DNA from: Methylohalobius crimeensis 10Ki | Lineage (GTDB): Bacteria; Pseudomonadota; Gammaproteobacteria; Methylococcales; Methylothermaceae | NCBI RefSeq assembly: GCF_000421465.1 | Contig: NZ_ATXB01000001.1 | Span: 1,240,001-1,304,000 of the forward strand | Length of the DNA stretch: 64,000 bases | Direction of reading: 5' to 3' | Part shown: piece after piece, positions 13,599 through 24,960 of the stretch | Numbering within the stretch: the first letter of the stretch is position 1 | How the letters are laid out: the number at the start of each line of letters is the position of its first letter | Translations under genes and position numbers: made by a program | The notes under the pieces: generated by a model | Seen by the model: the letters and a program-made list of their open reading frames with translations, nothing else | The model's database searches: none | What the model was told of the DNA's origin: nothing

Positions 13599-14612
13599 GT
13601 GAAAGAGCATTCCGTAACCCTCGCTCACGGCAGCGGCGGCCAGGCCATGGCCGGCCTCATCCGGGAGTTGTTTCTGGAAATATTCGACGATCCCGAACTG
13701 GCGAGGTTGGAAGACCAGGCCCGACTGGAATCTCCCGCCGGCAAACTCGCCATGACCACCGACGCCTCCGTCATCGACCCCATCTTTTTCCCCGGCGGCG
13801 ACATCGGCAAGCTGGCCGTGTGCGGCACCGTCAACGACCTGGCTGTGGGCGGCGCCCGGCCTCTTTACCTGAGCTGCGCGTTCATCCTGGAAGAAGGGTT
13901 GCCCTTGGCCGATCTGCGCCGGATCGCGTCTTCCATGAAGGCGGCGGCCGCCCGGGCCGGAATCAGGATCGTCACCGGCGACACCAAAGTGGTGCCGCGC
14001 GGGGCGGCGGACAAGGTTTTTATCACCACCTGCGGGGTAGGGGAAATCCCGCCCGGCGTGAATCTAGGCGCGGCCAACATCCGCCCCGGCGATCGCATCC
14101 TGATCAGCGGCTTCATCGGCGACCACGGCGCGGCGGTGCTCGACGCGAGAGGCGAACTGGCCCTGGAACATACCCTCGAAAGCGACTGCCGCCCTCTGAA
14201 TCACTTGGTCGCGCATCTGTTGTCGGCCTGCCCCAACGGCGTTCATGCCCTGCGCGATCCCACCCGGGGAGGCGTCGCGGCGGTCCTCAACGAATTCGCC
14301 CAAACCTGCGGCCATTGCCTGCGTCTCCGAGAAACCGAACTGCCGATGCGGGAAGCGGTTCGGGGAATGTGCGAAATCCTGGGTCTGGACCCGCTGTATC
14401 TGGCCAACGAAGGCAAGCTGGTGGCGGTCGTCGCTCCGAAAATCGCCGAAACCGCCTTGGCGGCTTTGCGCGATCACCCCGACGGCCGCGACGCCGCCAT
14501 CGTCGGCGAGGTCACGGAAACGCCCTCGGGAATGGTCATTCTGCACACAATCTTCGGCGGCGAACGAATCGTGGACCTGCCCATGGGGGAACAGTTGCCG
14601 CGGATTTGTTAG
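13599..14612 (+). CDS. hypE: HypE, thiocyanate-forming dehydratase of hydrogenase maturation
   Basis: HypE dehydrates the carbamoyl group that HypF puts on its C-terminal Cys, giving the CN donor. The 337-residue protein is of the PurM/ThiL-like ATP-binding family: LAHGSGGQAM (about residue 8), MTTDASVIDPIFFPGGDIGKLAVCGTVNDL-type nucleotide loop (about 50-80), GDTKVV (about 125) and DPTRGG (about 223). It ends PRIC, the conserved C-terminal Cys that becomes thiocarbamoylated, so the gene is complete. The start is GTG 13599, preceded by a weak ribosome binding site. It closes this maturation block. Confidence 0.97.
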   Translation: MKEHSVTLAHGSGGQAMAGLIRELFLEIFDDPELARLEDQARLESPAGKLAMTTDASVIDPIFFPGGDIGKLAVCGTVNDLAVGGARPLYLSCAFILEEGLPLADLRRIASSMKAAAARAGIRIVTGDTKVVPRGAADKVFITTCGVGEIPPGVNLGAANIRPGDRILISGFIGDHGAAVLDARGELALEHTLESDCRPLNHLVAHLLSACPNGVHALRDPTRGGVAAVLNEFAQTCGHCLRLRETELPMREAVRGMCEILGLDPLYLANEGKLVAVVAPKIAETALAALRDHPDGRDAAIVGEVTETPSGMVILHTIFGGERIVDLPMGEQLPRIC

Positions 14613-14925
14613 GGGCTGATTTTGGACGTTGGCCGATTTCTGGGCTAGTCTTGAAAAGTGTGGGCTGGGCTAATTATTTGATGGGAAATTATCGCGAAGC
14701 TGAGCGACAGGAGTAGGCCAATCAAGGTGAGCGGATTGAGAAAGGGAAGAGGGATTCATCATCGGCGTCGCTGTGCCATTCCGAAGCGCTTATGCAGGAT
14801 CAAAAAATGACGATCTACGAGCGTATACGGAATAAAAAGGGCGCCGCCTATCAAGACGCTAGAGTCGAACCTCCGCCCAGGCGGCCCGTCCGGGGCCACC
14901 TGCACGGAAGTCGCTCAGCTTCGCG
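14613..14925. other. Non-coding region between hypE and the first cassette gene; boundary of the cassette array
   Basis: No convincing gene is present. The main structure is a 16-bp perfect inverted repeat, 14693-14708 (CGCGAAGCTGAGCGAC) with 14910-14925, whose right arm ends in GTTAGAT, an attC-type core. A short open frame ending at 14716 (SVGWANYLMGNYREAER) resembles a TPR fragment but has no start or context. Confidence 0.5.
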
Positions 14926-14931
14926 TTAGAT
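14693..14931 (+). other. attC-like site 1 (left boundary of cassette 1), atypical long form
   Basis: Right end GCGTTAGAT (core GTTAGAT 14925-14931, matching GTTRRRY) is preceded by a 15-16 bp arm with a perfect inverted copy at 14693-14708. The predicted crossover is between G14925 and T14926. The arms are unusually far apart (about 200 bases), so this may be a degenerate or composite site. Confidence 0.5.
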
Positions 14932-14948
14932 GAAAAAGGAAGGTCACA

Positions 14949-15620
14949 TTGGACGTTGAAAATATCAAGCTCCACATTGACGGGCGCTGGGAGCTCACAG
15001 ACCTGAATGTACTTACTCGCGTGTATATTCAGGTTTACGGCCTTCTCTATTCTCTTGATGTGGCAGATGACTATATTGAAGAAGAAATACAATACATTTA
15101 CGGCAAGTACCCTTGGCGCGGAGGGTATAGCGCGGTTAATTTTTATCAAAATCTTTTCTCAAAAATGCCTCGGGAATACAGGCCGAGGATTAAGTCTATT
15201 CAATACGCATCGCCAGGGTTCATCGAGCTTTCCCAGCTCGTTGAAGTCGCAAAGGACATTTCGTTGATTGTGGGATACGTTTCTGCCGCCTTGCTTGCAG
15301 GAAATAAAACGTACAGCGCAATCCAGAAAGGCATAAGAGAACGAAAGCTATCAAAATTCGACCTTCGTAGCGAAGAACTGAAGCTTCTTGAAAAGGAGCG
15401 AGATTTTATTCACCAATCAGTCAGAGACATTGCACAGGTAATGGGTGTCCGAAAGGAAACGTTAGCCAAGCTCTATCTTCGTGCGGAGAATAATGAGCTA
15501 GCCGTTCTAAAAATACTGTCGTCCCTTTATCGCAGGGCGAGAGATCTCGCCAAACTGCAAAACAAGCAAAAGCTTAATTTGAAACGAGGCATTGATGAGC
15601 GAAATACATCTAACGAATAG
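14949..15620 (+). CDS. Cassette 1 protein, unknown function
   Basis: A 223-residue protein of unknown family. It starts at TTG 14949, eight bases after AAGGAAGG; no in-frame ATG occurs before residue 70, so the rare start is favoured. A moderately hydrophobic segment at about residues 103-120 (DISLIVGYVSAALLAG) could be a membrane helix, and the C-terminal half (about 130-215) is highly charged and helical (KLLEKERDF, RRARDLAKLQNKQKLNLKR). The stop lies just inside the attC R'' box, as is common for cassette genes. Base composition is lower in GC than the flanking hyp genes. The acidic-basic helical tail and membrane segment recall small effector proteins, but no function can be assigned. Confidence 0.7.
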   Translation: MDVENIKLHIDGRWELTDLNVLTRVYIQVYGLLYSLDVADDYIEEEIQYIYGKYPWRGGYSAVNFYQNLFSKMPREYRPRIKSIQYASPGFIELSQLVEVAKDISLIVGYVSAALLAGNKTYSAIQKGIRERKLSKFDLRSEELKLLEKERDFIHQSVRDIAQVMGVRKETLAKLYLRAENNELAVLKILSSLYRRARDLAKLQNKQKLNLKRGIDERNTSNE

Positions 15621-15883
15621 CTCCAGCGGACAGCAAAAAGCGCCGCTCGTTCCTCGCTCTGCTTTTTGCTGCCCCTGAGCATGGCGATAGGACAGACCGC
15701 TTACGCGGTCTGTCCTATCGGATCAGCTGTTGAGTTCCGCTGCGCTTCACTCGCCCGGCTTGATAGCCGCCGCGCTTCGCGCTCTGCCTATCAACCCGTT
15801 CGAGCCACTGCGCTTCTCAGCAAGAGCTTGTATAACAAGCTCTTGCCTGCGATGCTCGAGGCTCAACAGCTGATCCGTTAACG
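15608..15883 (+). other. attC-like site 2 (cassettes 1/2), expanded with nested inverted repeats
   Basis: It begins with R'' ATCTAAC (15608-15614), complementary to the start of cassette 1, and ends with CCG|TTAACG (15877/15878). At about 276 bases it is far longer than sites 3-5 (53-60 bases). Inside are stem CAGCAAAAAGC (15631-15641 with 15661-15671), a 16-bp hairpin with 4-base loop (15685-15720), a 16-bp pair 15719-15734/15862-15877, a 7-bp pair 15760-15766/15788-15794 and a 12-bp hairpin 15820-15846. Confidence 0.6.
15685..15720. repeat. 16-bp perfect hairpin, loop TTAC
   Basis: CGATAGGACAGACCGC (15685-15700) and its exact inverse (15705-15720) flank TTAC. There is no T-tract, so it is not an ordinary terminator. 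It sits inside attC-like site 2, directly abutting the left arm of the next inverted repeat. Confidence 0.85.
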
Positions 15884-15906
15884 CAAATATCAATCACGGA
15901 GCGCAT

Positions 15907-16428
15907 ATGATCATAAGAATTTTAATTTTGACCACAGTTATGATGGTAGTTTCTGGATGTGCCTCTACTTACCGTCACTCAGAGCTCCAAGCACCTGTTG
16001 CAAAGCTAGATTCTTCATTGGGTGTCCTAATTTCGGTGCCAGAGGATGGCTGGTATGAGAATACTCAATACAGGAACTCCGGTCGCATGGCAGCCAATGC
16101 AGTAAGAGCTGCCTTTTCTAAGAATGCAAGGAAGGTCGACATAGCACAAGATTGTCGTGATGAAGAATGCCTAGATGGGATAGATGCTGAGAAATATGGT
16201 TACTTCGTTAAACCAGTTATCCTTCATTGGGAAGAGCGTGCAACGGAGTGGTCCGGTAAGCCAGATCGCATAGAAATTCAAATAGTTATCTATGATGCCG
16301 TCACTAAATCAGAGGTGGCAAACTCCTCTTATACTGGAAAAAGTAAATGGGCAACATTTGGTGGAGATCACCCACAAGATTTATTGCCAGAGCCTACAAA
16401 TGAATACGTTTCTAACCTATACCAGTAA
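15907..16428 (+). CDS. Cassette 2 lipoprotein, DUF4823-like
   Basis: A 173-residue predicted lipoprotein: signal peptide MIIRILILTTVMMVVSGCAS with lipobox VSGC (Cys18). The mature part has the pattern VLISVPEDGWYENTQYRNSGRMAANAV, reminiscent of DUF4823 lipoproteins, which are often found in Vibrio-type chromosomal cassette arrays (family recall, not verified here). Two Cys (CRDEEC, about residues 83-88) may form a disulfide. Base composition is clearly AT-richer than that of neighbouring chromosomal genes, a sign of transfer. ATG 15907 follows GGAGCGC. The stop lies three bases before the R'' box of its attC. Role unknown; probably attached to the outer membrane. Confidence 0.75.
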   Translation: MIIRILILTTVMMVVSGCASTYRHSELQAPVAKLDSSLGVLISVPEDGWYENTQYRNSGRMAANAVRAAFSKNARKVDIAQDCRDEECLDGIDAEKYGYFVKPVILHWEERATEWSGKPDRIEIQIVIYDAVTKSEVANSSYTGKSKWATFGGDHPQDLLPEPTNEYVSNLYQ

Positions 16429-16430
16429 AG

Positions 16431-16483
16431 CGTTAACAAGCAAAGGCAGCGGATGCTATGCACCGCTGCTTTGAGCGTTATGT
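16431..16483 (+). other. attC site 3 (cassettes 2/3)
   Basis: A 53-base site: R'' CGTTAAC (16431-16437), L'' AAAGGCAGCGG, central loop, L' CCGCTGCTTT, R' GTTATGT (16477-16483). The left arm carries one extra G relative to the right arm, the extrahelical base typical of attC. Crossover is predicted at G16477/T16478. Confidence 0.8.
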
Positions 16484-16561
16484 TTCATGATGACTCTGTT
16501 GACCTCTATAAGAACACTACGCACCGGCTGATGAAGGGCGGAATCGGAAGAGACAGTTGAC

Positions 16562-18097
16562 ATGGAGAAAACTATAGCGACCGCTATACACTGTGAAACG
16601 GCAGCGAAACTAAACTTCGCTTGTCACCAGAGCGCGTTCGCCTTTCTGCGAGAGTTGCGGATCGAAAACGCGGACCACGATACGCGGCTGGACGACGTAT
16701 TTGTCAGCCTGTCGTCGAACCCGTCCTTCCTGAAGCCCAAATCTTGGCGGCTGGATCGGATCGCGCCGGAAGGGTCGATCTCGGTCAAAGACCGGGATAT
16801 CGAGCTTGACGGGGACTTTCTCCTCGCTCTGGCCGATGCCGTGCGCGGCACCGTCACCATTACCGTCGAAAAGGATGGATCGGTTCTGGCGGAAGAGAAG
16901 AAGCCCGTCGAATTGCTGGCCTATAACGAATGGGGCGGCGCAGGCTACATGCCCGAACTGCTTGCCGCATTCTCCATGCCCAACGATCCGGCGGTGGATA
17001 GTGTGTTGCGCGACGCGAGCCTCATCTTGCGAAAAGCGGGAAAACAGGACGGCATCGACGGCTACAAGACGGGGAGCCGCCAACGGGTATGGGAAATCGC
17101 GTCTGCCGTCTACACCGCCATCTGCAACCTCGGCATCACCTATTCCGTGCCCCCGGCGAGTTTCGAGCGTGACGGACAAAAAATCCGATTGCCCAGCCAA
17201 GTCCTGGAGAACCGCGTAGCGACCTGCCTCGATTGCACCATGCTGTTCACCTCGGCATTGGAGCAGGCCGGGCTCAACCCCATCATCGCATTGCCTAAGG
17301 GCCATGCGGTGGTCGGCGTGTGGTTGCAGCCCGAAGAGCTCACGACCATCGTCATCGACGAAGCGGAAACCCTGAGGAAACGCATCCAGCTCAAGGAACT
17401 CGTGCTGATCGAGACGACCTATGTGACGTCGCATCCCGCGCCACCATTTTCTAAGGCCGTCGCGGCTGCGACGGAAGTGATCGCTCCAGATAAGGACGAC
17501 ACCTTCAATTCGGCGATTGATATCCGCCGCGCCCGTGCCCATCGAATCGCTCCCCTCGGGCTGAAATCCGGCAAGCCTTCGGGGCCGGCAGAAGAGAGGG
17601 ACGGCGAACGCGTGGAGCTCACCCTTGAAGAGGCTCCGGCGTTGCCCGACTTCGACGATGGCGTCGAGGAGGAAGAACTGTCCGAAACGCCGGCCGGGCG
17701 TCTGGAGCGATGGCAGCGCAAGCTATTGGACCTCTCCGCACGGAACCCGCTCCTCAATCACAAGTCCACGAAAACGAGTTTGCGCCTTATCTGTCCGGCG
17801 CCGGGACTGCTGGAAGACAAGCTGGCCGAGGGAGCCCGGATCTCGATCCAGCCGATCCCACGGCCCACGACTCACGGGCAGGACGAAGAACTTCATCAGC
17901 AGCGTACCGGTGAGGTGATCACGGAAGAATACGCCCGGGATGCGCTGGAGAGGAACTCTCCCGGCGAGCGGTCGATATTTACAGAAAAGCTCAGACAGCA
18001 CTTCAGGAAGGCGGCGCGAATACGCTCTATCTGGCTCTCGGCTTCCTGCTGTGGAAACGCGACGAGAAGGATGAGCGTCGGTTCCGCGCGCCGCTGA
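16562..18097 (+). CDS. N-terminal part of a frameshifted giant helicase-nuclease (transglutaminase-like, DUF4011)
   Basis: First reading-frame segment of the single gene in cassette 3. Residues 1-150 are unassigned; residues about 160-300 contain ATCLDCTMLFTSALEQAG followed by KGHAVVGVWL, the Cys and His regions of a transglutaminase-like fold. At about 380 the DUF4011 motif ERWQRKLLDLSARNPLLNH begins. The correct frame is lost near 17948-17955, within GCTGGAGAGGAAC: removing one AG would continue DALE into ELSRRAVDIYRKAQTAL, the expected family sequence, in the frame of the downstream segment. Residues after about 464 here are therefore out of frame. ATG 16562 follows GGAAGAGAC. Together with 18100-22485 it would give about 1,973 residues. 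Confidence 0.85.
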   Translation: MEKTIATAIHCETAAKLNFACHQSAFAFLRELRIENADHDTRLDDVFVSLSSNPSFLKPKSWRLDRIAPEGSISVKDRDIELDGDFLLALADAVRGTVTITVEKDGSVLAEEKKPVELLAYNEWGGAGYMPELLAAFSMPNDPAVDSVLRDASLILRKAGKQDGIDGYKTGSRQRVWEIASAVYTAICNLGITYSVPPASFERDGQKIRLPSQVLENRVATCLDCTMLFTSALEQAGLNPIIALPKGHAVVGVWLQPEELTTIVIDEAETLRKRIQLKELVLIETTYVTSHPAPPFSKAVAAATEVIAPDKDDTFNSAIDIRRARAHRIAPLGLKSGKPSGPAEERDGERVELTLEEAPALPDFDDGVEEEELSETPAGRLERWQRKLLDLSARNPLLNHKSTKTSLRLICPAPGLLEDKLAEGARISIQPIPRPTTHGQDEELHQQRTGEVITEEYARDALERNSPGERSIFTEKLRQHFRKAARIRSIWLSASCCGNATRRMSVGSARR

Positions 18098-18099
18098 TC

Positions 18100-21000
18100 T
18101 TGCTGCCGGTGACCCTGGAACGAAAATCCGTTCGCAGTGGAATCCGGATGCTGGCCCATGACGACGAGCCGCGCTTCAACACGACACTGTTGGAGATGCT
18201 GCGAAAAGACTTCGAGATCGATATCCGGGGCTTGGACGGGGAACTGCCGACAGATCACAGCGGTATCGACGTGAGCGGGATTTGGAACACTGTGCGCAAG
18301 GCGGTGAAGGACGCGCCGGGGTTCGAAGTCGTCGAGGATGCAGTGCTAGGCCATTTTTCCTTCGCCAAATATCTCATGTGGAAGGATCTGGTCGACCGCA
18401 CCGATGCGCTGCGGAAGAACGCGATCGTCAAGCACCTCATTGATACGCCGCGCGATCCTTATCCCAGCGATATCGCCTTTGTGGACAGCACTCTTATCGA
18501 TCGGCACTTCAAGCCGTCCGATTTGCTGACTCCGCTGCCTGCGGACTCATCACAAATGGCGGCGATCGCCACGGCAGACCGTGGCAAGAACTTCATCATC
18601 ATCGGCCCGCCCGGGACGGGCAAGAGCCAGACCATCAGCAATCTGATCGCCCATATGTTGGGCAAGGGGAAGACGGTTCTCTTTGTTTCGGAGAAGACCG
18701 CAGCGCTGGAGGTTGTGTACCGACGCCTGAAAGACATTGGGCTTGGAAGGTTCTGTTTGGAGCTTCATTCCAACAAAGCCCGCAAGGCCGACGTGCTCGA
18801 CCAATTGCGCAATGCATGGGATCTCCATCAAAGCGCCAAGGCCGAAGCTTGGGAGCAAGAGGCCGAGCGGCTGCGGATCTTGCGCGACCAACTGAATCGT
18901 GTCGTGGACCGACTACACATCCCCCGCCGGAACGGAATCACGGCTCATTACGCCATCGGCGTGAAAGTTCGAGACGAGAATTTGGCGTCGCGTGTGACCC
19001 TTTCCTGGCCGTCCGCGGATCAGCACGATAAGGCCCGTTTGGACGCAATGCGTGAAGCCGTCAAATGGCTCCGTGTGCAGGTCACCGCCGTGGGAGATGT
19101 GGCCGAAAGCCCTTTCCAGTTGGTGACGAAAGGTGACTGGTCGCCGCAATGGGAAGGCCAAGTGGTCGAACAGGCAGGCTGCCTGTCTGCGGCGGCGTCC
19201 AAATCGGAGCGTTCCTGCAAAGCGCTGTTGGACGCCATAGGGATCGATGGGCCCGATCGCTCAATGGCGCGCCTGGACGCTGTTGCCGATCTCGCGGCGG
19301 TCTTGATGGAGTCCTATCGCAGACAGATTGCCTACGCACTCGAGCCGGATGGGTCAGATCGTATCGAGGCGCTTGAAGAAGCTGTGCAGCGGCTCAAGGC
19401 CTATGCTGAAGATCAGGCGGCACTGAGTTGCGCTTACGATCCCATGGCTTGGCGCAAATTGGATGGGGATGAGATTGCTCAGCGCTGGCAAGAAGCGGAA
19501 GCGGCTTGGTGGCCCAAAAGTTTCTTCGCCCGCCGTCGCCTGATCAAGGACATGAAGGCAGGAGGGGCACAGGGAGTTCCGGATCCGGTTCGCGACGCGC
19601 CGACGCTTAAGCGTTTGCGCTTGGAAGGCGAAGCCATCGACCGCCTGAACAAGCTGCTTTCAGAATTCAAGGACTGGGAGGGGCATACGACCAGCCCCGA
19701 CGTGGCTCTCGCCTTGCGGACCCTCGGGCAGCGGGCGCGACTTGCAGTTGGCAGGTTGGCTGACGATGCGCCGACGCTGGTGGAAGTTCGCAGCAAGGTT
19801 CGAACCTTGATGCATGACGGCAACGATTTGTTAGCGCCTGAGGCTGCAGTCGGTCGGGCTGCACAGGAGTTCCTGACGGCCAACAAGGGACTAAAGGAAA
19901 CATGCACGGCGTTCGAAGCCATCGCCGGAAGGTCGGTGAGAGAGCATTTCGCGGAAACAGGCAAGGCGCTGGATGCCATTCGGGAGACGGCGGACACTAT
20001 CGCTGCGCGCCATGCAGAATTGCATGATTGGTGCGGCTGGCGTCATCGTCGAACGGCGGCAATGGATCTGGAGCTGGGGCCGCTGGTGGACGCGATTGAG
20101 AAGGGCCGCATTCCGGCAGAGGAGATCGAAGCGACTTTCGAAGCAGCATATTGTACATGGTGGTCGGGCGCGGTGATCGGGGAAGATGAAGTCTTGCGAA
20201 CCTTTTCCACACCCGAGCACGTCGCGACAATTGAGAAATTCCGCGAGATCGACAGTCAATTCCAGGACCTCACGGCAGCCTATATCTCTGCCAAGTTGGC
20301 GGGCAATCTTCCGGATGCCGATGACGTCAAGCGAAGTTCGTCCTGGGGTGTTCTGCGCCGTGAGATCCAAAAGAAAAGACAGCATAAGCCGGTCCGCCAG
20401 TTAGTCCAGGAGATGCCTGACGTTCTGACCAAACTGGCACCTTGTCTCATGATGTCGCCGCTGTCCGTTGCCCAGTATCTGCCGGCTGACCAAGCGTTGT
20501 TCGATGTCGTGATCTTTGACGAAGCGTCGCAGATCACCGTCTGGGACGCGGTTGGCTCCCTGGCGCGCGGACGTCAAGCCATTGTCGCCGGCGATCCGAA
20601 ACAAATGCCGCCAACAAACTTCTTCGCGCGGGCCGACGACGATCCCGATGGGAAAGTGGATACGGAAGGGGATTTGGAGAGCATCCTGGACGAAATGTTG
20701 GGGGCGAGCATCCCGCAGCGGACCCTCAACCTGCATTATCGGTCGCGCAGGGAGAGCCTAATCGCGTTCTCCAACAGCCGATACTATGGCAATGAACTCG
20801 TCACCTTCCCCGCCCCCATACACCCTGATCACGGCGTTCGCCTGATCCGCCCCGACGGCTTTTATGCACGTGGAAAGGCGCGTCATAACGAAGGGGAAGC
20901 AAAGGCGATTGTTGCGGAGATTTTGCGAAGAGTCACCCACGAGGACGAGGTGGTGCGGGAACAGTCCATCGGCGTTGTAACCTTCAATTCCGAACAGCAG

Positions 21001-22485
21001 TCGCTGATCGAGAATTTGCTGGACGAAGCGCGCTCCAGAAATCCACAAATCGAATGGGCATTCTCCACGGATAGCACGCTTGAGCCGGTGTTCGTGAAAA
21101 ACCTGGAGACCGTGCAGGGGGACGAACGGGACGTGATCCTGTTCAGTATCACTTACGGTCCGGATCAGGGCGACCACGTCACCATGAATTTCGGCCCCCT
21201 CAATCGGGACGGAGGGGAGCGCCGCCTGAACGTGGCCATGACACGGGCACGCTCCGAAATGCTGGTGTTCTCCACGCTCAGTCCCGATCGCATCGATCTT
21301 TCGCGGACGCAGGCTCGGGCAGTCGCAGACTTGAAGCATTTCCTGGAATATGCTGAACGTGGTCCATCGGCACTCGGAGCGGCAGTTTATGGTTCGATCG
21401 GTGATTTTGAGTCCCCATTTGAATCTGCGGTTGCCCGGGCGCTACGGGATAGGGGATGGGACGTCCATCCGCAAGTCGGCGTATCCGCCTATCGAATCGA
21501 CTTGGGTGTTGTCCATCCAGATGAGCCGGGGATCTACCTCGCCGGTGTCGAGTGTGATGGTGCCATGTACCACAGCTCCGCTTTCGCACGGGAACGCGAC
21601 AAGATCCGCCAGTCGGTTCTGGAGGGACTCGGCTGGACTTTATTCCGCGTGTGGTCGACCGATTGGTGGACCCATCGTGCAAAGGCTTTGGACTCCCTCA
21701 ATGAGGCGCTGAAAGTCCATCTGGAAGCGGATCGGCAAAAGCGGGAAGAAGCAGTTCGGGCGATGGAGGCAAACGCTGCGGATTCATCTTCTCGCCCGGA
21801 TCATATCGATGGATCCGGGGAAGAGATTGTCGCGCCGATTTTGCCCACTGAAATGACAATTGACGAGACGGACGCATCAGGCCCGGATTTCGAGCCGCAG
21901 GAAAGCTATATGGCCGCTGATCTTGCGAGGCCAGAACCTTCGGCCGGTGAGGTGCCATCAAACCGAATGCCGGAGTCCCCCGATGACCTATTTGGCAATA
22001 ACGAACACAGCTATGTGGTGGCGGACCTCGACGGAGGGAATTATAGGGCTGAACCGAACACGTTCTACTCCGAGGAGTACGAGCCTCGGCTGTCAGCCAT
22101 GATCGATCACGTCATCGATATAGAAGGACCGATCCATGAAGATGTGTTGGTCCGGCGTATTGCACGCCATCACGGATTTCAGCGTGCGGGTCGCCAGATC
22201 CGTGAAATTGTCATCGATATAGCGAAGCGCCGTCGGGGCCGGACAAAGGAAGATGTCGGCTTGTTTTTCTGGCGCAAGGGAACGGTCAAAGATCGCCTCG
22301 CGCCAGCCCGTTATGCGGGCCGTGATGATGAAATGCGGAAGGCGGAGTATATCTGCAAGGAGGAAATCCGCGCGATCAGAGCTTTGTTGTCCCTTAGCGA
22401 CGACCCCATTGAGATAGCCCGCCATATTGGCATTGCTCGATTAAGCCAGAGCGCTCGCGACCGGCTAAGCAAGGCGCTGGGTTGA
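18100..22485 (+). CDS. Main part of the frameshifted helicase-nuclease: SF1 helicase, REase_MTES_1575-like nuclease, DUF3320
   Basis: Second segment of the cassette 3 gene; the frame is open upstream to the frameshift near 17950, and TTG 18100 is only the first nominal start. Residues about 165-180 hold Walker A IIIGPPGTGKSQTISNL. A long insert follows, then Walker B/motif II VVIFDEASQ (about 804), GDPKQMPP (motif III), LHYRSRRESLI (motif IV), TVQGDERDVILFS (motif V) and LNVAMTRAR (motif VI), making an SF1 helicase. Residues about 1110-1190 (IDLGV...VECDGAMYHSS) match the restriction-endonuclease-like domain often appended to these helicases. The C-terminal region from about 1325 looks like DUF3320. 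Such multidomain proteins recur in defence islands; an antiphage role is inferred. Frameshift or sequencing error would decide activity. Confidence 0.88.
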   Translation: MLPVTLERKSVRSGIRMLAHDDEPRFNTTLLEMLRKDFEIDIRGLDGELPTDHSGIDVSGIWNTVRKAVKDAPGFEVVEDAVLGHFSFAKYLMWKDLVDRTDALRKNAIVKHLIDTPRDPYPSDIAFVDSTLIDRHFKPSDLLTPLPADSSQMAAIATADRGKNFIIIGPPGTGKSQTISNLIAHMLGKGKTVLFVSEKTAALEVVYRRLKDIGLGRFCLELHSNKARKADVLDQLRNAWDLHQSAKAEAWEQEAERLRILRDQLNRVVDRLHIPRRNGITAHYAIGVKVRDENLASRVTLSWPSADQHDKARLDAMREAVKWLRVQVTAVGDVAESPFQLVTKGDWSPQWEGQVVEQAGCLSAAASKSERSCKALLDAIGIDGPDRSMARLDAVADLAAVLMESYRRQIAYALEPDGSDRIEALEEAVQRLKAYAEDQAALSCAYDPMAWRKLDGDEIAQRWQEAEAAWWPKSFFARRRLIKDMKAGGAQGVPDPVRDAPTLKRLRLEGEAIDRLNKLLSEFKDWEGHTTSPDVALALRTLGQRARLAVGRLADDAPTLVEVRSKVRTLMHDGNDLLAPEAAVGRAAQEFLTANKGLKETCTAFEAIAGRSVREHFAETGKALDAIRETADTIAARHAELHDWCGWRHRRTAAMDLELGPLVDAIEKGRIPAEEIEATFEAAYCTWWSGAVIGEDEVLRTFSTPEHVATIEKFREIDSQFQDLTAAYISAKLAGNLPDADDVKRSSSWGVLRREIQKKRQHKPVRQLVQEMPDVLTKLAPCLMMSPLSVAQYLPADQALFDVVIFDEASQITVWDAVGSLARGRQAIVAGDPKQMPPTNFFARADDDPDGKVDTEGDLESILDEMLGASIPQRTLNLHYRSRRESLIAFSNSRYYGNELVTFPAPIHPDHGVRLIRPDGFYARGKARHNEGEAKAIVAEILRRVTHEDEVVREQSIGVVTFNSEQQSLIENLLDEARSRNPQIEWAFSTDSTLEPVFVKNLETVQGDERDVILFSITYGPDQGDHVTMNFGPLNRDGGERRLNVAMTRARSEMLVFSTLSPDRIDLSRTQARAVADLKHFLEYAERGPSALGAAVYGSIGDFESPFESAVARALRDRGWDVHPQVGVSAYRIDLGVVHPDEPGIYLAGVECDGAMYHSSAFARERDKIRQSVLEGLGWTLFRVWSTDWWTHRAKALDSLNEALKVHLEADRQKREEAVRAMEANAADSSSRPDHIDGSGEEIVAPILPTEMTIDETDASGPDFEPQESYMAADLARPEPSAGEVPSNRMPESPDDLFGNNEHSYVVADLDGGNYRAEPNTFYSEEYEPRLSAMIDHVIDIEGPIHEDVLVRRIARHHGFQRAGRQIREIVIDIAKRRRGRTKEDVGLFFWRKGTVKDRLAPARYAGRDDEMRKAEYICKEEIRAIRALLSLSDDPIEIARHIGIARLSQSARDRLSKALG

Positions 22486-22497
22486 TACCTGAATGAA

Positions 22498-22557
22498 ACA
22501 TAACAACAGCATGCAGCGGACGGCGCTGCGCGCCGCCGCTGATGCTTATCGTTCGGC
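22498..22557 (+). other. attC site 4 (cassettes 3/4)
   Basis: A 60-base site: R'' ACATAAC (22498-22504), left arm AGCATGCAGCGG, right arm CCGCTGATGCT, R' GTTCGGC (22551-22557). The left arm again has one unpaired G, the hallmark extrahelical base. Crossover is predicted at G22551/T22552. Confidence 0.8.
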
Positions 22558-22566
22558 AAGTGACCA

Positions 22567-23100
22567 ATGATCGAGTCTCAGTACTGGAAAGAAGAGCTTC
22601 AGCGGATAGCTCAAGGTCTGAAGAAAGTGGGTCGTCCGCGTCGCTGGGGCGAACGAGCCCACTGCGTTCTAGAGAGAGACATCATGGTGGGCTTCTTCAT
22701 GCTCCGGCGGCTAATCGAACTGCACAAGGTTTCACGCCGGACCAGCGACCAAATATTGCGCGTTTTCTCATACAAAGCGGTCGGAAAAAAGGTCCATCGT
22801 CTGAATGGACATGAAATCTGGGAACTCTATGATATGGAAAGAGAACGCCCAGAACAAAAGAGGCCGCTGTACGTCGCTAATCAGTTCATTCATGCGTATA
22901 CAAGCTTTGTTGCGCGTGACGAGAGCAGAAACTGGAGTGATGTGTTCGTTGTTTCGGATTTTGACAAAAACGATTGCATCTGGCGCGTTCCGGTTGACGA
23001 GATTCGAAGACTGTTTCTGAATGCCGCCAGTGATTACCCTCACATAGCCAGGATGGTGTTCAACGAAAAGAAGGGTGATTACGACATTGAGACGAACTAA
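22567..23100 (+). CDS. Cassette 4 protein, unknown function
   Basis: A 177-residue soluble, basic protein with no recognised domain. ATG 22567 lies nine bases after the end of the site 4 core, so the ribosome binding site is partly built from attC sequence (AAGTGACCA), as is seen in compact cassettes. The N-terminal half is helical and Arg/Lys-rich (GLKKVGRPRRWGERAH); the C-terminal part (about 115-160) has mixed beta character (SDVFVVSDFDKNDCIWRVP). Stop TAA 23098-23100 lies 18 bases before the R'' box of site 5. No membrane or export signal is visible. Confidence 0.75.
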   Translation: MIESQYWKEELQRIAQGLKKVGRPRRWGERAHCVLERDIMVGFFMLRRLIELHKVSRRTSDQILRVFSYKAVGKKVHRLNGHEIWELYDMERERPEQKRPLYVANQFIHAYTSFVARDESRNWSDVFVVSDFDKNDCIWRVPVDEIRRLFLNAASDYPHIARMVFNEKKGDYDIETN

Positions 23101-23118
23101 CTGCGGAGGCGCAAAAAT

Positions 23119-23177
23119 GCCGAACAATGCGCTCCAGCCGACTGAATCGCTCCGGGTTCACCGGAGACCCGTTAGTT
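23119..23177 (+). other. attC site 5 (end of cassette 4)
   Basis: A 59-base site: R'' GCCGAAC (23119-23125), left half AACAATGCGCTCCAGCCGAC closely resembling left halves of well-known class 1 attC sites, R' GTTAGTT (23171-23177). The right half (CCGGAGACCC) does not complement the left arm well, so this site may be damaged or recombined next to the IS remnants. Confidence 0.65.
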
Positions 23178-23739: not shown

Positions 23740-24960
23740 ATGACAACAACCTCCGACATTCGCGTCAGCATTGATGTGGGCTGTCACAGTCACAGTGTAG
23801 CGATCGGCCTGCCCTGTGGAGAAGTGCTGGACGAATTCGACCTGCCCCACCGGCCGGAAGGCTTCGAGCTTTTCTTCGAGCGAATCGAACACCACCACCA
23901 TCGCTATGGGGGTGAGGTCTCGGTGGCCATGGAAGGGTATAACGGCTGGGCTCGCCCGTTGGACACCCTCGTGCGCTCCCATGGTTATCGCCTTTTCAAT
24001 ATCAATAATCTGAAGCTTGCCCGCTTCAAGGAGATTTTCCCGGCGGCGGCTAAAACAGACCGAATCGATGCACGGAAAGGCCTCGAGCTGTTCCAGCTGC
24101 GGGACTATCTCCCATCGGCCAAAGGGGTGCTCCAGGAGGTCTCAGCAACGCCGGTTGAGAACGAAAAACTGAAGCGTCTGACCCGCCGGCGCCGTTCGCT
24201 GGTTAATGAGAAAAGTCGCCTTCTGAGCCGCATGCAGGCTGATTTGCAGGCGGTTTGCCCCGGATTGCTGGCAATCACCAAGGATGCGGAAAACCTCTGG
24301 TTTTTGAACTTTATCACCTATAGTGACGACCTTCGTAAGCTTGCCCGTATCCGTCGGAAGACGGTGCTTTCGATCAAAGGCATCGGACGCACATACGTCG
24401 AGGTGATAGGCGGTTGGCAGAAGGCTGCGAGCTTCAGCCACGATGTTGAGTGGGTCGGCCCGATGATTGTTGAAGATGCCCGTCGAATACTGGACCTGAG
24501 ACAGAAGATAAAGGCGCTTGAAGTCCGCTGTGAAGAACTCATGGGCCAGTCAGAGATTGCACAGCTGGTCGATACCATACCCGGCTTTGCGACCGTATGT
24601 GCGTCGGAGCTGGCCGGTGAACTCGGTACCATCGAGCGCTTCGCCAAAGAAGGTAGTCTTGCGGTCTACGTGGGCATGGCGAACCTCGACAACAGCTCAG
24701 GAAATCAGCGCGGCTCGAAGAACCCAAAGCATGTGAATACGCGCGCAAAAGCGGCGATGCTGGTGGGTGTCGATCGGCACCGAAAGCAGGTTCCTGAATC
24801 ACAGCGCTTCTATGAGAAAAAGCGCGCCCAGGGTAAGAGCCATAATCAGGCTATCCGTGCGTTGGGGCGCCATCTGTGCCGCGTGCTATTTCGAATGCTC
24901 AAACAGGGAAGGGCGTATGAGCTCAGGATAGCTTCACCAGAGAAAACTAGCTCGAAATAG
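23740..24960 (+). CDS. IS110-family DEDD recombinase (transposase)
   Basis: A 406-residue IS110-type recombinase from a different subgroup than the one at 10.6 kb. The DEDD domain starts VSIDVGCHSHSVAIGLP (Asp near residue 12), with SVAMEGYNGWARPL (Glu near 66) and KTDRIDARKGLEL (about 105). The Transposase_20 domain holds DTIPGFATVCASELAGELG (about 283) and VYVGMANLDNSSGNQRG with the catalytic Ser. ATG 23740 is preceded by ACGGAG. The gene looks complete and could be active. Confidence 0.93.
   Translation: MTTTSDIRVSIDVGCHSHSVAIGLPCGEVLDEFDLPHRPEGFELFFERIEHHHHRYGGEVSVAMEGYNGWARPLDTLVRSHGYRLFNINNLKLARFKEIFPAAAKTDRIDARKGLELFQLRDYLPSAKGVLQEVSATPVENEKLKRLTRRRRSLVNEKSRLLSRMQADLQAVCPGLLAITKDAENLWFLNFITYSDDLRKLARIRRKTVLSIKGIGRTYVEVIGGWQKAASFSHDVEWVGPMIVEDARRILDLRQKIKALEVRCEELMGQSEIAQLVDTIPGFATVCASELAGELGTIERFAKEGSLAVYVGMANLDNSSGNQRGSKNPKHVNTRAKAAMLVGVDRHRKQVPESQRFYEKKRAQGKSHNQAIRALGRHLCRVLFRMLKQGRAYELRIASPEKTSSK

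What the first reader, a model, noticed from the sequence alone, without database searches (positions are those of the whole stretch)
16478..22551. An exceptionally large cassette (about 6 kb) carrying a giant helicase-nuclease
Typical integron cassettes hold one gene of less than 1-2 kb. Cassette 3 has matched cores at both ends but contains one gene of about 5.9 kb: transglutaminase-like domain, DUF4011, SF1 helicase, restriction-endonuclease-like domain and DUF3320. This architecture is of the defence-island type. Movement of such a gene as a single cassette would be an unusual route for spreading antiphage functions.
Basis: partly seen in the sequence, partly recalled or inferred. Interest (0 to 1): 0.78.

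Follow-up and report, generated by a model that had tools for sequence, protein, structure and literature searches.

The report
Six-kilobase integron cassette carrying antiphage gene
A gene normally found in bacterial antivirus islands sits here inside an unusually long mobile DNA cassette, but this copy has lost a short piece and is probably no longer working.

Summary
Positions 16478-22551 (6,074 bp) form one integron gene cassette. Its ends match over 12 bp, 85 nt before the start codon and 8-19 nt after the stop codon. Two foldable attC sites bound it; one is 92% identical to an attC in a Pseudoalteromonas cassette array. It is the third of four consecutive cassettes after hypE. The six congeners with hypE show none of the cassette genes there; in two, hypE runs straight into the hoxF-like gene.

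The gene is NCBIfam's "anti-phage protein ProA" (NF058533; PADLOC candidate PDC-S37), not the similar Hhe. All named domains are present; a confident model of the N-terminus shows a beta-sandwich plus a transglutaminase-like fold. Against three relatives it lacks a net 31 nt near 17,944-17,962, which shifts the frame, so this copy is probably a pseudogene.

Of 114 relatives with both flanks, none has end matches beyond chance, so cassettes are not this family's usual route. No integrase adjoins the array; the genome's two integron integrases lie about 45 and 830 kb away. Defence cassettes are known, but a review describes them as size-streamlined. Size, gene and site make this an outlier, not a new system.

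The parts
14693..14932 (+). attC-like hairpin in front of cassette 1 (16-bp arms 14693-14708 and 14910-14925); its R' box GTTAGATG opens cassette 1; its R'' box is degenerate
   Evidence: read; DNA fold z -4.37; single copy in the genome
14926..15877 (+). cassette 1: PD-T4-10_B-like gene (14949-15620); its attC (15607-15884) is enlarged by a palindromic repeat unit also found elsewhere in the genome
   Evidence: 8-bp matched core, 67 of 20,000 shuffles; PADLOC E 5.8e-37; repeat copies
15878..16477 (+). cassette 2: DUF4823 protein, lipoprotein-like signal by eye (15907-16428)
   Evidence: 8-bp matched core, 88 of 20,000 shuffles; Pfam PF16105 E 1.4e-37
16431..16483 (+). attC2, left boundary of cassette 3
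   Evidence: fold z -3.08; 92% identical to an attC in Pseudoalteromonas and 84% to a site in Vibrio maritimus
16478..22551 (+). cassette 3, 6,074 bp between G|TT points
   Evidence: 12-bp matched core, 1 of 20,000 flank shuffles
16562..18097 (+). proA 5' part: beta-sandwich, transglutaminase-like domain (Cys222, His248), start of DUF4011; runs out of frame after about 17,944-17,962
   Evidence: NF058533 471.6 bits over positions 1-446; model and fold match
17944..17962 (+). site of a net 31-nt loss against three relatives, which shifts the frame
   Evidence: L015, L158, L043; protein alignment
18100..22485 (+). proA 3' part: rest of DUF4011, split SF1 helicase, MTES_1575 REase-like nuclease, DUF3320
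   Evidence: NF058533 1618.3 bits, cut-off 1500; PDC-S37 1131.4 bits; Pfam
22493..22557 (+). attC3, right boundary of cassette 3 (R'' ATGAAACATAAC, R' GTTCGGC)
   Evidence: fold z -3.16
22552..23125 (+). cassette 4: 177-aa protein of no family (22567-23100); its R'' TGCCGAAC ends at 23125; no complete attC follows by eye
   Evidence: 8-bp matched core, 71 of 20,000 shuffles; no Pfam hit
23740..24960 (+). IS110-family transposase after the broken end of the array
   Evidence: Pfam
13599..14612 (+). hypE, last host gene before the array; in four of six congeners nucleotide similarity ends within 2 nt of its stop codon (earlier, inside the gene, in the other two)
   Evidence: Pfam AIRS domains

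Best explanation
Cassettes c1-c4 are integron gene cassettes carried into the space after hypE by integron-integrase recombination at folded attC sites, away from an integrase gene (a cluster of attC sites lacking an integrase). Cassette 3 was a 6,074-bp circle carrying one gene, proA. Intact ProA probably acts as a single-protein DNA-targeting defence: the SF1 helicase core loads on and moves along invading DNA, the MTES_1575 nuclease cuts it, and the N-terminal transglutaminase-like cysteine enzyme with DUF4011 controls activation or modifies a protein. In this genome a 31-nt loss has broken the reading frame, so the cassette is most likely a dead passenger. Shown: cassette anatomy, family, domains, absence from the site in congeners, frame break. 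Inferred: integrase action, circle, ProA mechanism, loss of function.
For: Matched cores on all four cassettes. attC folds. attC2 homologous to an attC of another array. ProA family score. Of 118 open relatives, 118 keep the transglutaminase Cys and the Walker Lys, 117 the His and 117 the nuclease Asp, and the window copy keeps them too. In congeners hypE lies 10 nt (G282) or 32 nt (G280) from the next start codon, that of the hoxF-like gene, or about 0.55 kb from an RlmM homologue (G274); no cassette gene is found in the stretches read from the six congeners with hypE. ProA absent from 9 of 9 congeners. Two integron integrases in the genome. Net 31-nt loss against three relatives.
Against: No integrase adjoins the array. 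The nearest intI lies about 45 kb away, and my chain scan found no cassette chain in the 40 kb read around it (that scan also missed c1 and c4 here). Core matching alone is not significant genome-wide. No second copy of this cassette was found, so its excision or transfer has not been seen. Re-initiation at a TTG (18100) could still make a 1,461-aa fragment. The ProA mechanism rests on domains only.
Confidence: 0.75

Rival explanations
1. ProA was not captured as a cassette; it arrived as part of a transposon or island, and the flanking matches are terminal repeats or chance.
For: 12-bp terminal matches also fit short transposon ends; 101 of 300 shuffled windows hold such a pair somewhere; none of 114 relatives shows cassette ends beyond chance; IS110 genes lie on both sides.
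Against: The cut points coincide with attC folds, one homologous to an attC elsewhere; neighbours c1, c2 and c4 follow the same rule; the only long frame inside is proA; the gene fills the cassette (84 nt before, 7 nt after, by coordinates).
Confidence: 0.1
2. The cassette is a live defence gene; the frame break is a sequencing or assembly error, or is bypassed.
For: A single lesion in about 1,970 codons with the catalytic residues kept; second part open for 1,461 codons.
Against: The same net 31 nt is missing against three relatives, which is not a typical single-base error; 118 relatives have one open frame of over 1,500 codons, against 6 that do not (L041, L064, L085, L178, L179, L201; some only cut by contig ends).
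Confidence: 0.2
3. A small older cassette was enlarged by insertion of proA into it, so integrase did not move 6 kb at once.
For: Capture of large cassettes is thought rare (PMC5371416 section 13, read).
Against: By eye no remnant of another gene lies between the cores and proA; the spacing at both ends is that of an ordinary one-gene cassette.
Confidence: 0.15

Closest known systems
ProA antiphage protein (NCBIfam NF058533; PADLOC PDC-S37)
   Same: Whole domain order and length; score over the curated cut-off
   Different: Here inside an integron cassette and frame-broken; none of 114 flank-tested relatives shows cassette ends beyond chance
Hhe antiphage protein (NCBIfam NF042953)
   Same: DUF4011-helicase-nuclease core partly aligns (748 bits)
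   Different: Far below its cut-off of 2000 bits
Antiphage integron cassettes (Darracq, Getz, Kieffer 2025; known here only through passages and reference lists of PMC12409362 and PMC12444791)
   Same: A defence-family gene in an attC-bounded cassette
   Different: The review reports defence systems streamlined in size in integrons; this cassette is about 6 kb with one giant gene
Clusters of attC sites lacking an integrase (CALIN; name recalled)
   Same: Cassettes with no adjoining integrase
   Different: Lies right after hypE in a hydrogenase-gene region; the genome still has two intI genes elsewhere

Membership tests
Integron gene cassette | complementary R' and R'' core boxes at the two ends | tested here: met
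   12 bp; 1 of 20,000 flank shuffles
Integron gene cassette | attC sites that fold on the bottom strand | tested here: met
   z -3.08 and -3.16
Integron gene cassette | attC related to attC sites of other arrays | tested here: met
   attC2 92% to Pseudoalteromonas; the stretch with attC3 and cassette 4 found nothing in plasmids
Integron gene cassette | excision or integration by IntI | not testable with these tools
   needs an experiment or a second location
Complete integron | intI and attI beside the array | tested here: not met
   intI at about 45 kb and 830 kb, none in the window
ProA (NF058533) | score over 1500 bits with the full domain order | tested here: met
   471.6 and 1618.3 bits for the two parts
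ProA (NF058533) | one uninterrupted reading frame | tested here: not met
   net 31-nt loss
ProA (NF058533) | protection against phage | not testable with these tools
   no assay
Hhe (NF042953) | score over 2000 bits | tested here: not met
   748.3 bits
Transglutaminase-like superfamily (N-terminal domain) | fold with catalytic Cys and His | tested here: met
   pLDDT 95 model; residues 125-329 match yeast PNGase (Z 9.3, 157 aligned, 3.9 A) and residues 128-319 S. pyogenes TglA (Z 9.2, 139 aligned, 3.4 A); Cys 118/118, His 117/118. Against: third residue Asp kept in only 71/118, and the Pfam score is below cut-off

The most novel reading that the evidence does not exclude
Integron integrases can capture and insert a complete giant single-gene defence system (about 6 kb, about 1,970 residues) as one cassette, outside any integron, into a host gene cluster whose transcription could express it. 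The reported size limit on defence cassettes would then be a tendency, not a barrier.
Probability: 0.4. Interest if true: 0.65.

Novelty: new variant of a known kind. Interest (0 to 1): 0.48.

Why it matters
Integron cassettes are thought to carry small genes, and a review reports that defence systems in integrons are shrunk to fit. One clean 6-kb cassette with a giant defence gene makes the size question directly testable, and shows attC-bounded cassettes lodged after hypE without an adjoining integrase. Its weight is limited because this copy is broken and no second such cassette was found.

Tried and rejected
Hhe membership: rejected by score. A covariance model of attC: the alignment gave no base pairs, so R1 was built on sequence alone and not used. 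Structural scans for attC: the second is at or below the shuffled level, so dropped as evidence. Chain scan with stems: chains of two also occur in 15 of 100 shuffles, so weak; a chain scan without stems finds chains of five in the window and as long or longer in 86 of 300 shuffles, so no evidence at all. Genome-wide core matches: not significant. Relatives with 8-10 bp end matches (11 of 114, 9.05 expected): none has an attC-like arm-and-core fold by the criterion, two (L160, L193) fit GTTRRRY at 6 of 7 but lie 264-514 nt from the gene; only L103 was also read by eye. Plasmid search with the attC3 and cassette 4 stretch: no match. Solved structures by sequence: only helicase and helicase/nuclease chains for the 3' part, none for the 5' part. 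Search for a paper that names ProA or PDC-S37 as antiphage: none seen in the rows listed (one search listed 20 of 1,281). A ProA cassette in print: none seen in the rows listed, open-licence papers only.
Full report
What is there. The window is G000:C1:1240001-1304000 of a 3.5-Mb genome. Another genome of the same order is identical over 8,152 nt to a Methylococcaceae MAG locus (L164 and L067), so the host is probably in or near the Methylococcales (inferred). After hypE (13599-14612) come four consecutive cassettes on the + strand. Each holds one gene and has ends whose core boxes pair with each other: c1 8 bp, c2 8 bp, c3 12 bp, c4 8 bp. Cassette 3 spans 16478-22551, 6,074 bp, with 84 nt before the start codon and 7 nt between the stop codon and the matched R'' stretch.

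How strong the cassette call is. Core matching over the whole window is not significant: 101 of 300 shuffles hold a pair of 12 bp or more. Given the position beside one gene, it is: 1 of 20,000 shuffles for c3, 88 for c2, 71 for c4 and 67 for c1 with an adjusted stretch; 27 control genes give at most 6 bp. Both attC sites of c3 fold on the bottom strand. A structure-only attC scan gave no excess. Independent support: the attC2 stretch is 92% identical over 51 nt to a site on a Pseudoalteromonas megaplasmid. There it precedes a 2.9-kb cassette with its own 11-bp matched core. A site in Vibrio maritimus is 84% identical.

What the gene is. Both parts hit NCBIfam NF058533, anti-phage protein ProA: 471.6 bits for the 5' part (profile 1-446) and 1618.3 bits for the 3' part (504-1875), against a cut-off of 1500; Hhe gets 748.3 against 2000. 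PADLOC names it PDC-S37 (1131.4 bits). Pfam shows DUF4011, AAA_11, AAA_12, MTES_1575 and DUF3320 over cut-off, and Transglut_core below it. AlphaFold2 of residues 1-350 (37 sequences) gave pLDDT 95. Residues 4-121 match beta-sandwich domains; residues 125-329 match yeast PNGase (Z 9.3) and residues 128-319 streptococcal TglA (Z 9.2). In 118 open relatives the Cys is kept in 118, the His in 117, the third residue Asp in only 71, Walker Lys in 118, nuclease Asp in 117 and Glu in 110; the window copy has all of these residues.

It is broken. The frame changes near 17,944-17,962. Against L015, L158 and L043 the window lacks a net 31 nt each time. Intact copies exist in relatives (118 open over more than 1,500 codons). 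A loss of 31 nt is not a usual single-base error, so I read this copy as a pseudogene, though raw reads were not available.

Where else it occurs. Own genome included, ProA matches at E <= 1e-100 occur in 16 of 274 class genomes; at E <= 1e-250 in 24 of 311 order genomes and 40 of 398 phylum genomes. 9 of 9 congeners lack it at E <= 1e-50. 326 plasmid records match the 3' part, none at 60% identity or more. Of 114 relatives with both flanks (110 distinct genes), 11 have end matches of 8-10 bp within 600 nt, against 9.05 expected from shuffles, and none of 11 or more; none of the 11 comes with an attC-like fold. As true cassettes here match over as little as 8 bp, single misses among relatives cannot be excluded. 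The closest relatives (L015, L158, L041-L045 and L191, 56-73%) show no such pair at all. In L044 the next gene is PDC-S06, and near L041, whose own ProA frame is also broken, a bSEFIR-like stretch lies. So in this sample the family lives in islands and plasmids, and this cassette is the exception.

Site. In congeners hypE lies 10 nt (G282) or 32 nt (G280) from the start codon of the hoxF-like gene, counted on the sequence printed, or about 0.55 kb from an RlmM homologue (G274). None of the six congeners with hypE has a cassette gene in the stretch read; in G280 only 715 nt follow hypE on the contig. In four of the six the nucleotide similarity ends within 2 nt of the hypE stop codon, in two earlier. 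The genome's two integron integrases lie at C1:1209203 and C1:422803. The second has attC-like sites and a chain of two matched-core cassettes beside it, and it shares with attC1 a palindromic repeat unit. These integrases could have supplied the recombination (inferred). The cassettes point the same way as the hyp genes, so read-through expression is possible (inferred); no promoter excess was seen.

Against what is known. [quoted passage not shown] ProA is a single gene, so it is not a direct contradiction. PMC5371416 (section 13 read) finds that recombination itself does not stringently forbid long cassettes and suggests that they are less likely to be created. Defence genes in cassettes are therefore known; a 6-kb one with a giant gene was not seen in the searches named under Tried and rejected. 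The verdict is a real, unusual and probably dead cassette of a known antiphage family.

Noticed in passing
14949-15620: Cassette 1 encodes a PD-T4-10_B-like protein (the toxin half of an antiphage toxin-antitoxin pair, per PMC9519451 passages) with no partner gene in its cassette by eye; so two of the four cassettes are defence-related.
   Followed up: partly
15607-15884; G000:C1:431296-431405 and 433849-433937: attC1 contains a palindromic repeat unit; two parts of the same unit lie near the other integron, about 2.4 kb apart with recombinase-like frames between them; a further 81% copy lies on C2.
   Followed up: partly
L014 (G000:C1:425001-445000): A second cassette array with several attC-like sites lies beside the intI at C1:422803.
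   Followed up: partly
L211:6045-8951: A Pseudoalteromonas megaplasmid array holds a 2.9-kb cassette with a 926-aa ATP-binding protein and an 11-bp matched core.
   Followed up: partly
L213:3195-5823: Nitrosococcus halophilus plasmid pNHAL01, beside a stretch similar to attC1, carries PDC-S35/TIR-like and HNH-effector-like genes.
   Followed up: no
L158 (G451:C1:604686-609884): A ProA about 70-72% identical to the window's in another genome of the same order, with no cassette-like ends and an open frame of 1,745 codons (L209); the stops that one search counts there seem to come from the match running past the gene's end.
   Followed up: partly
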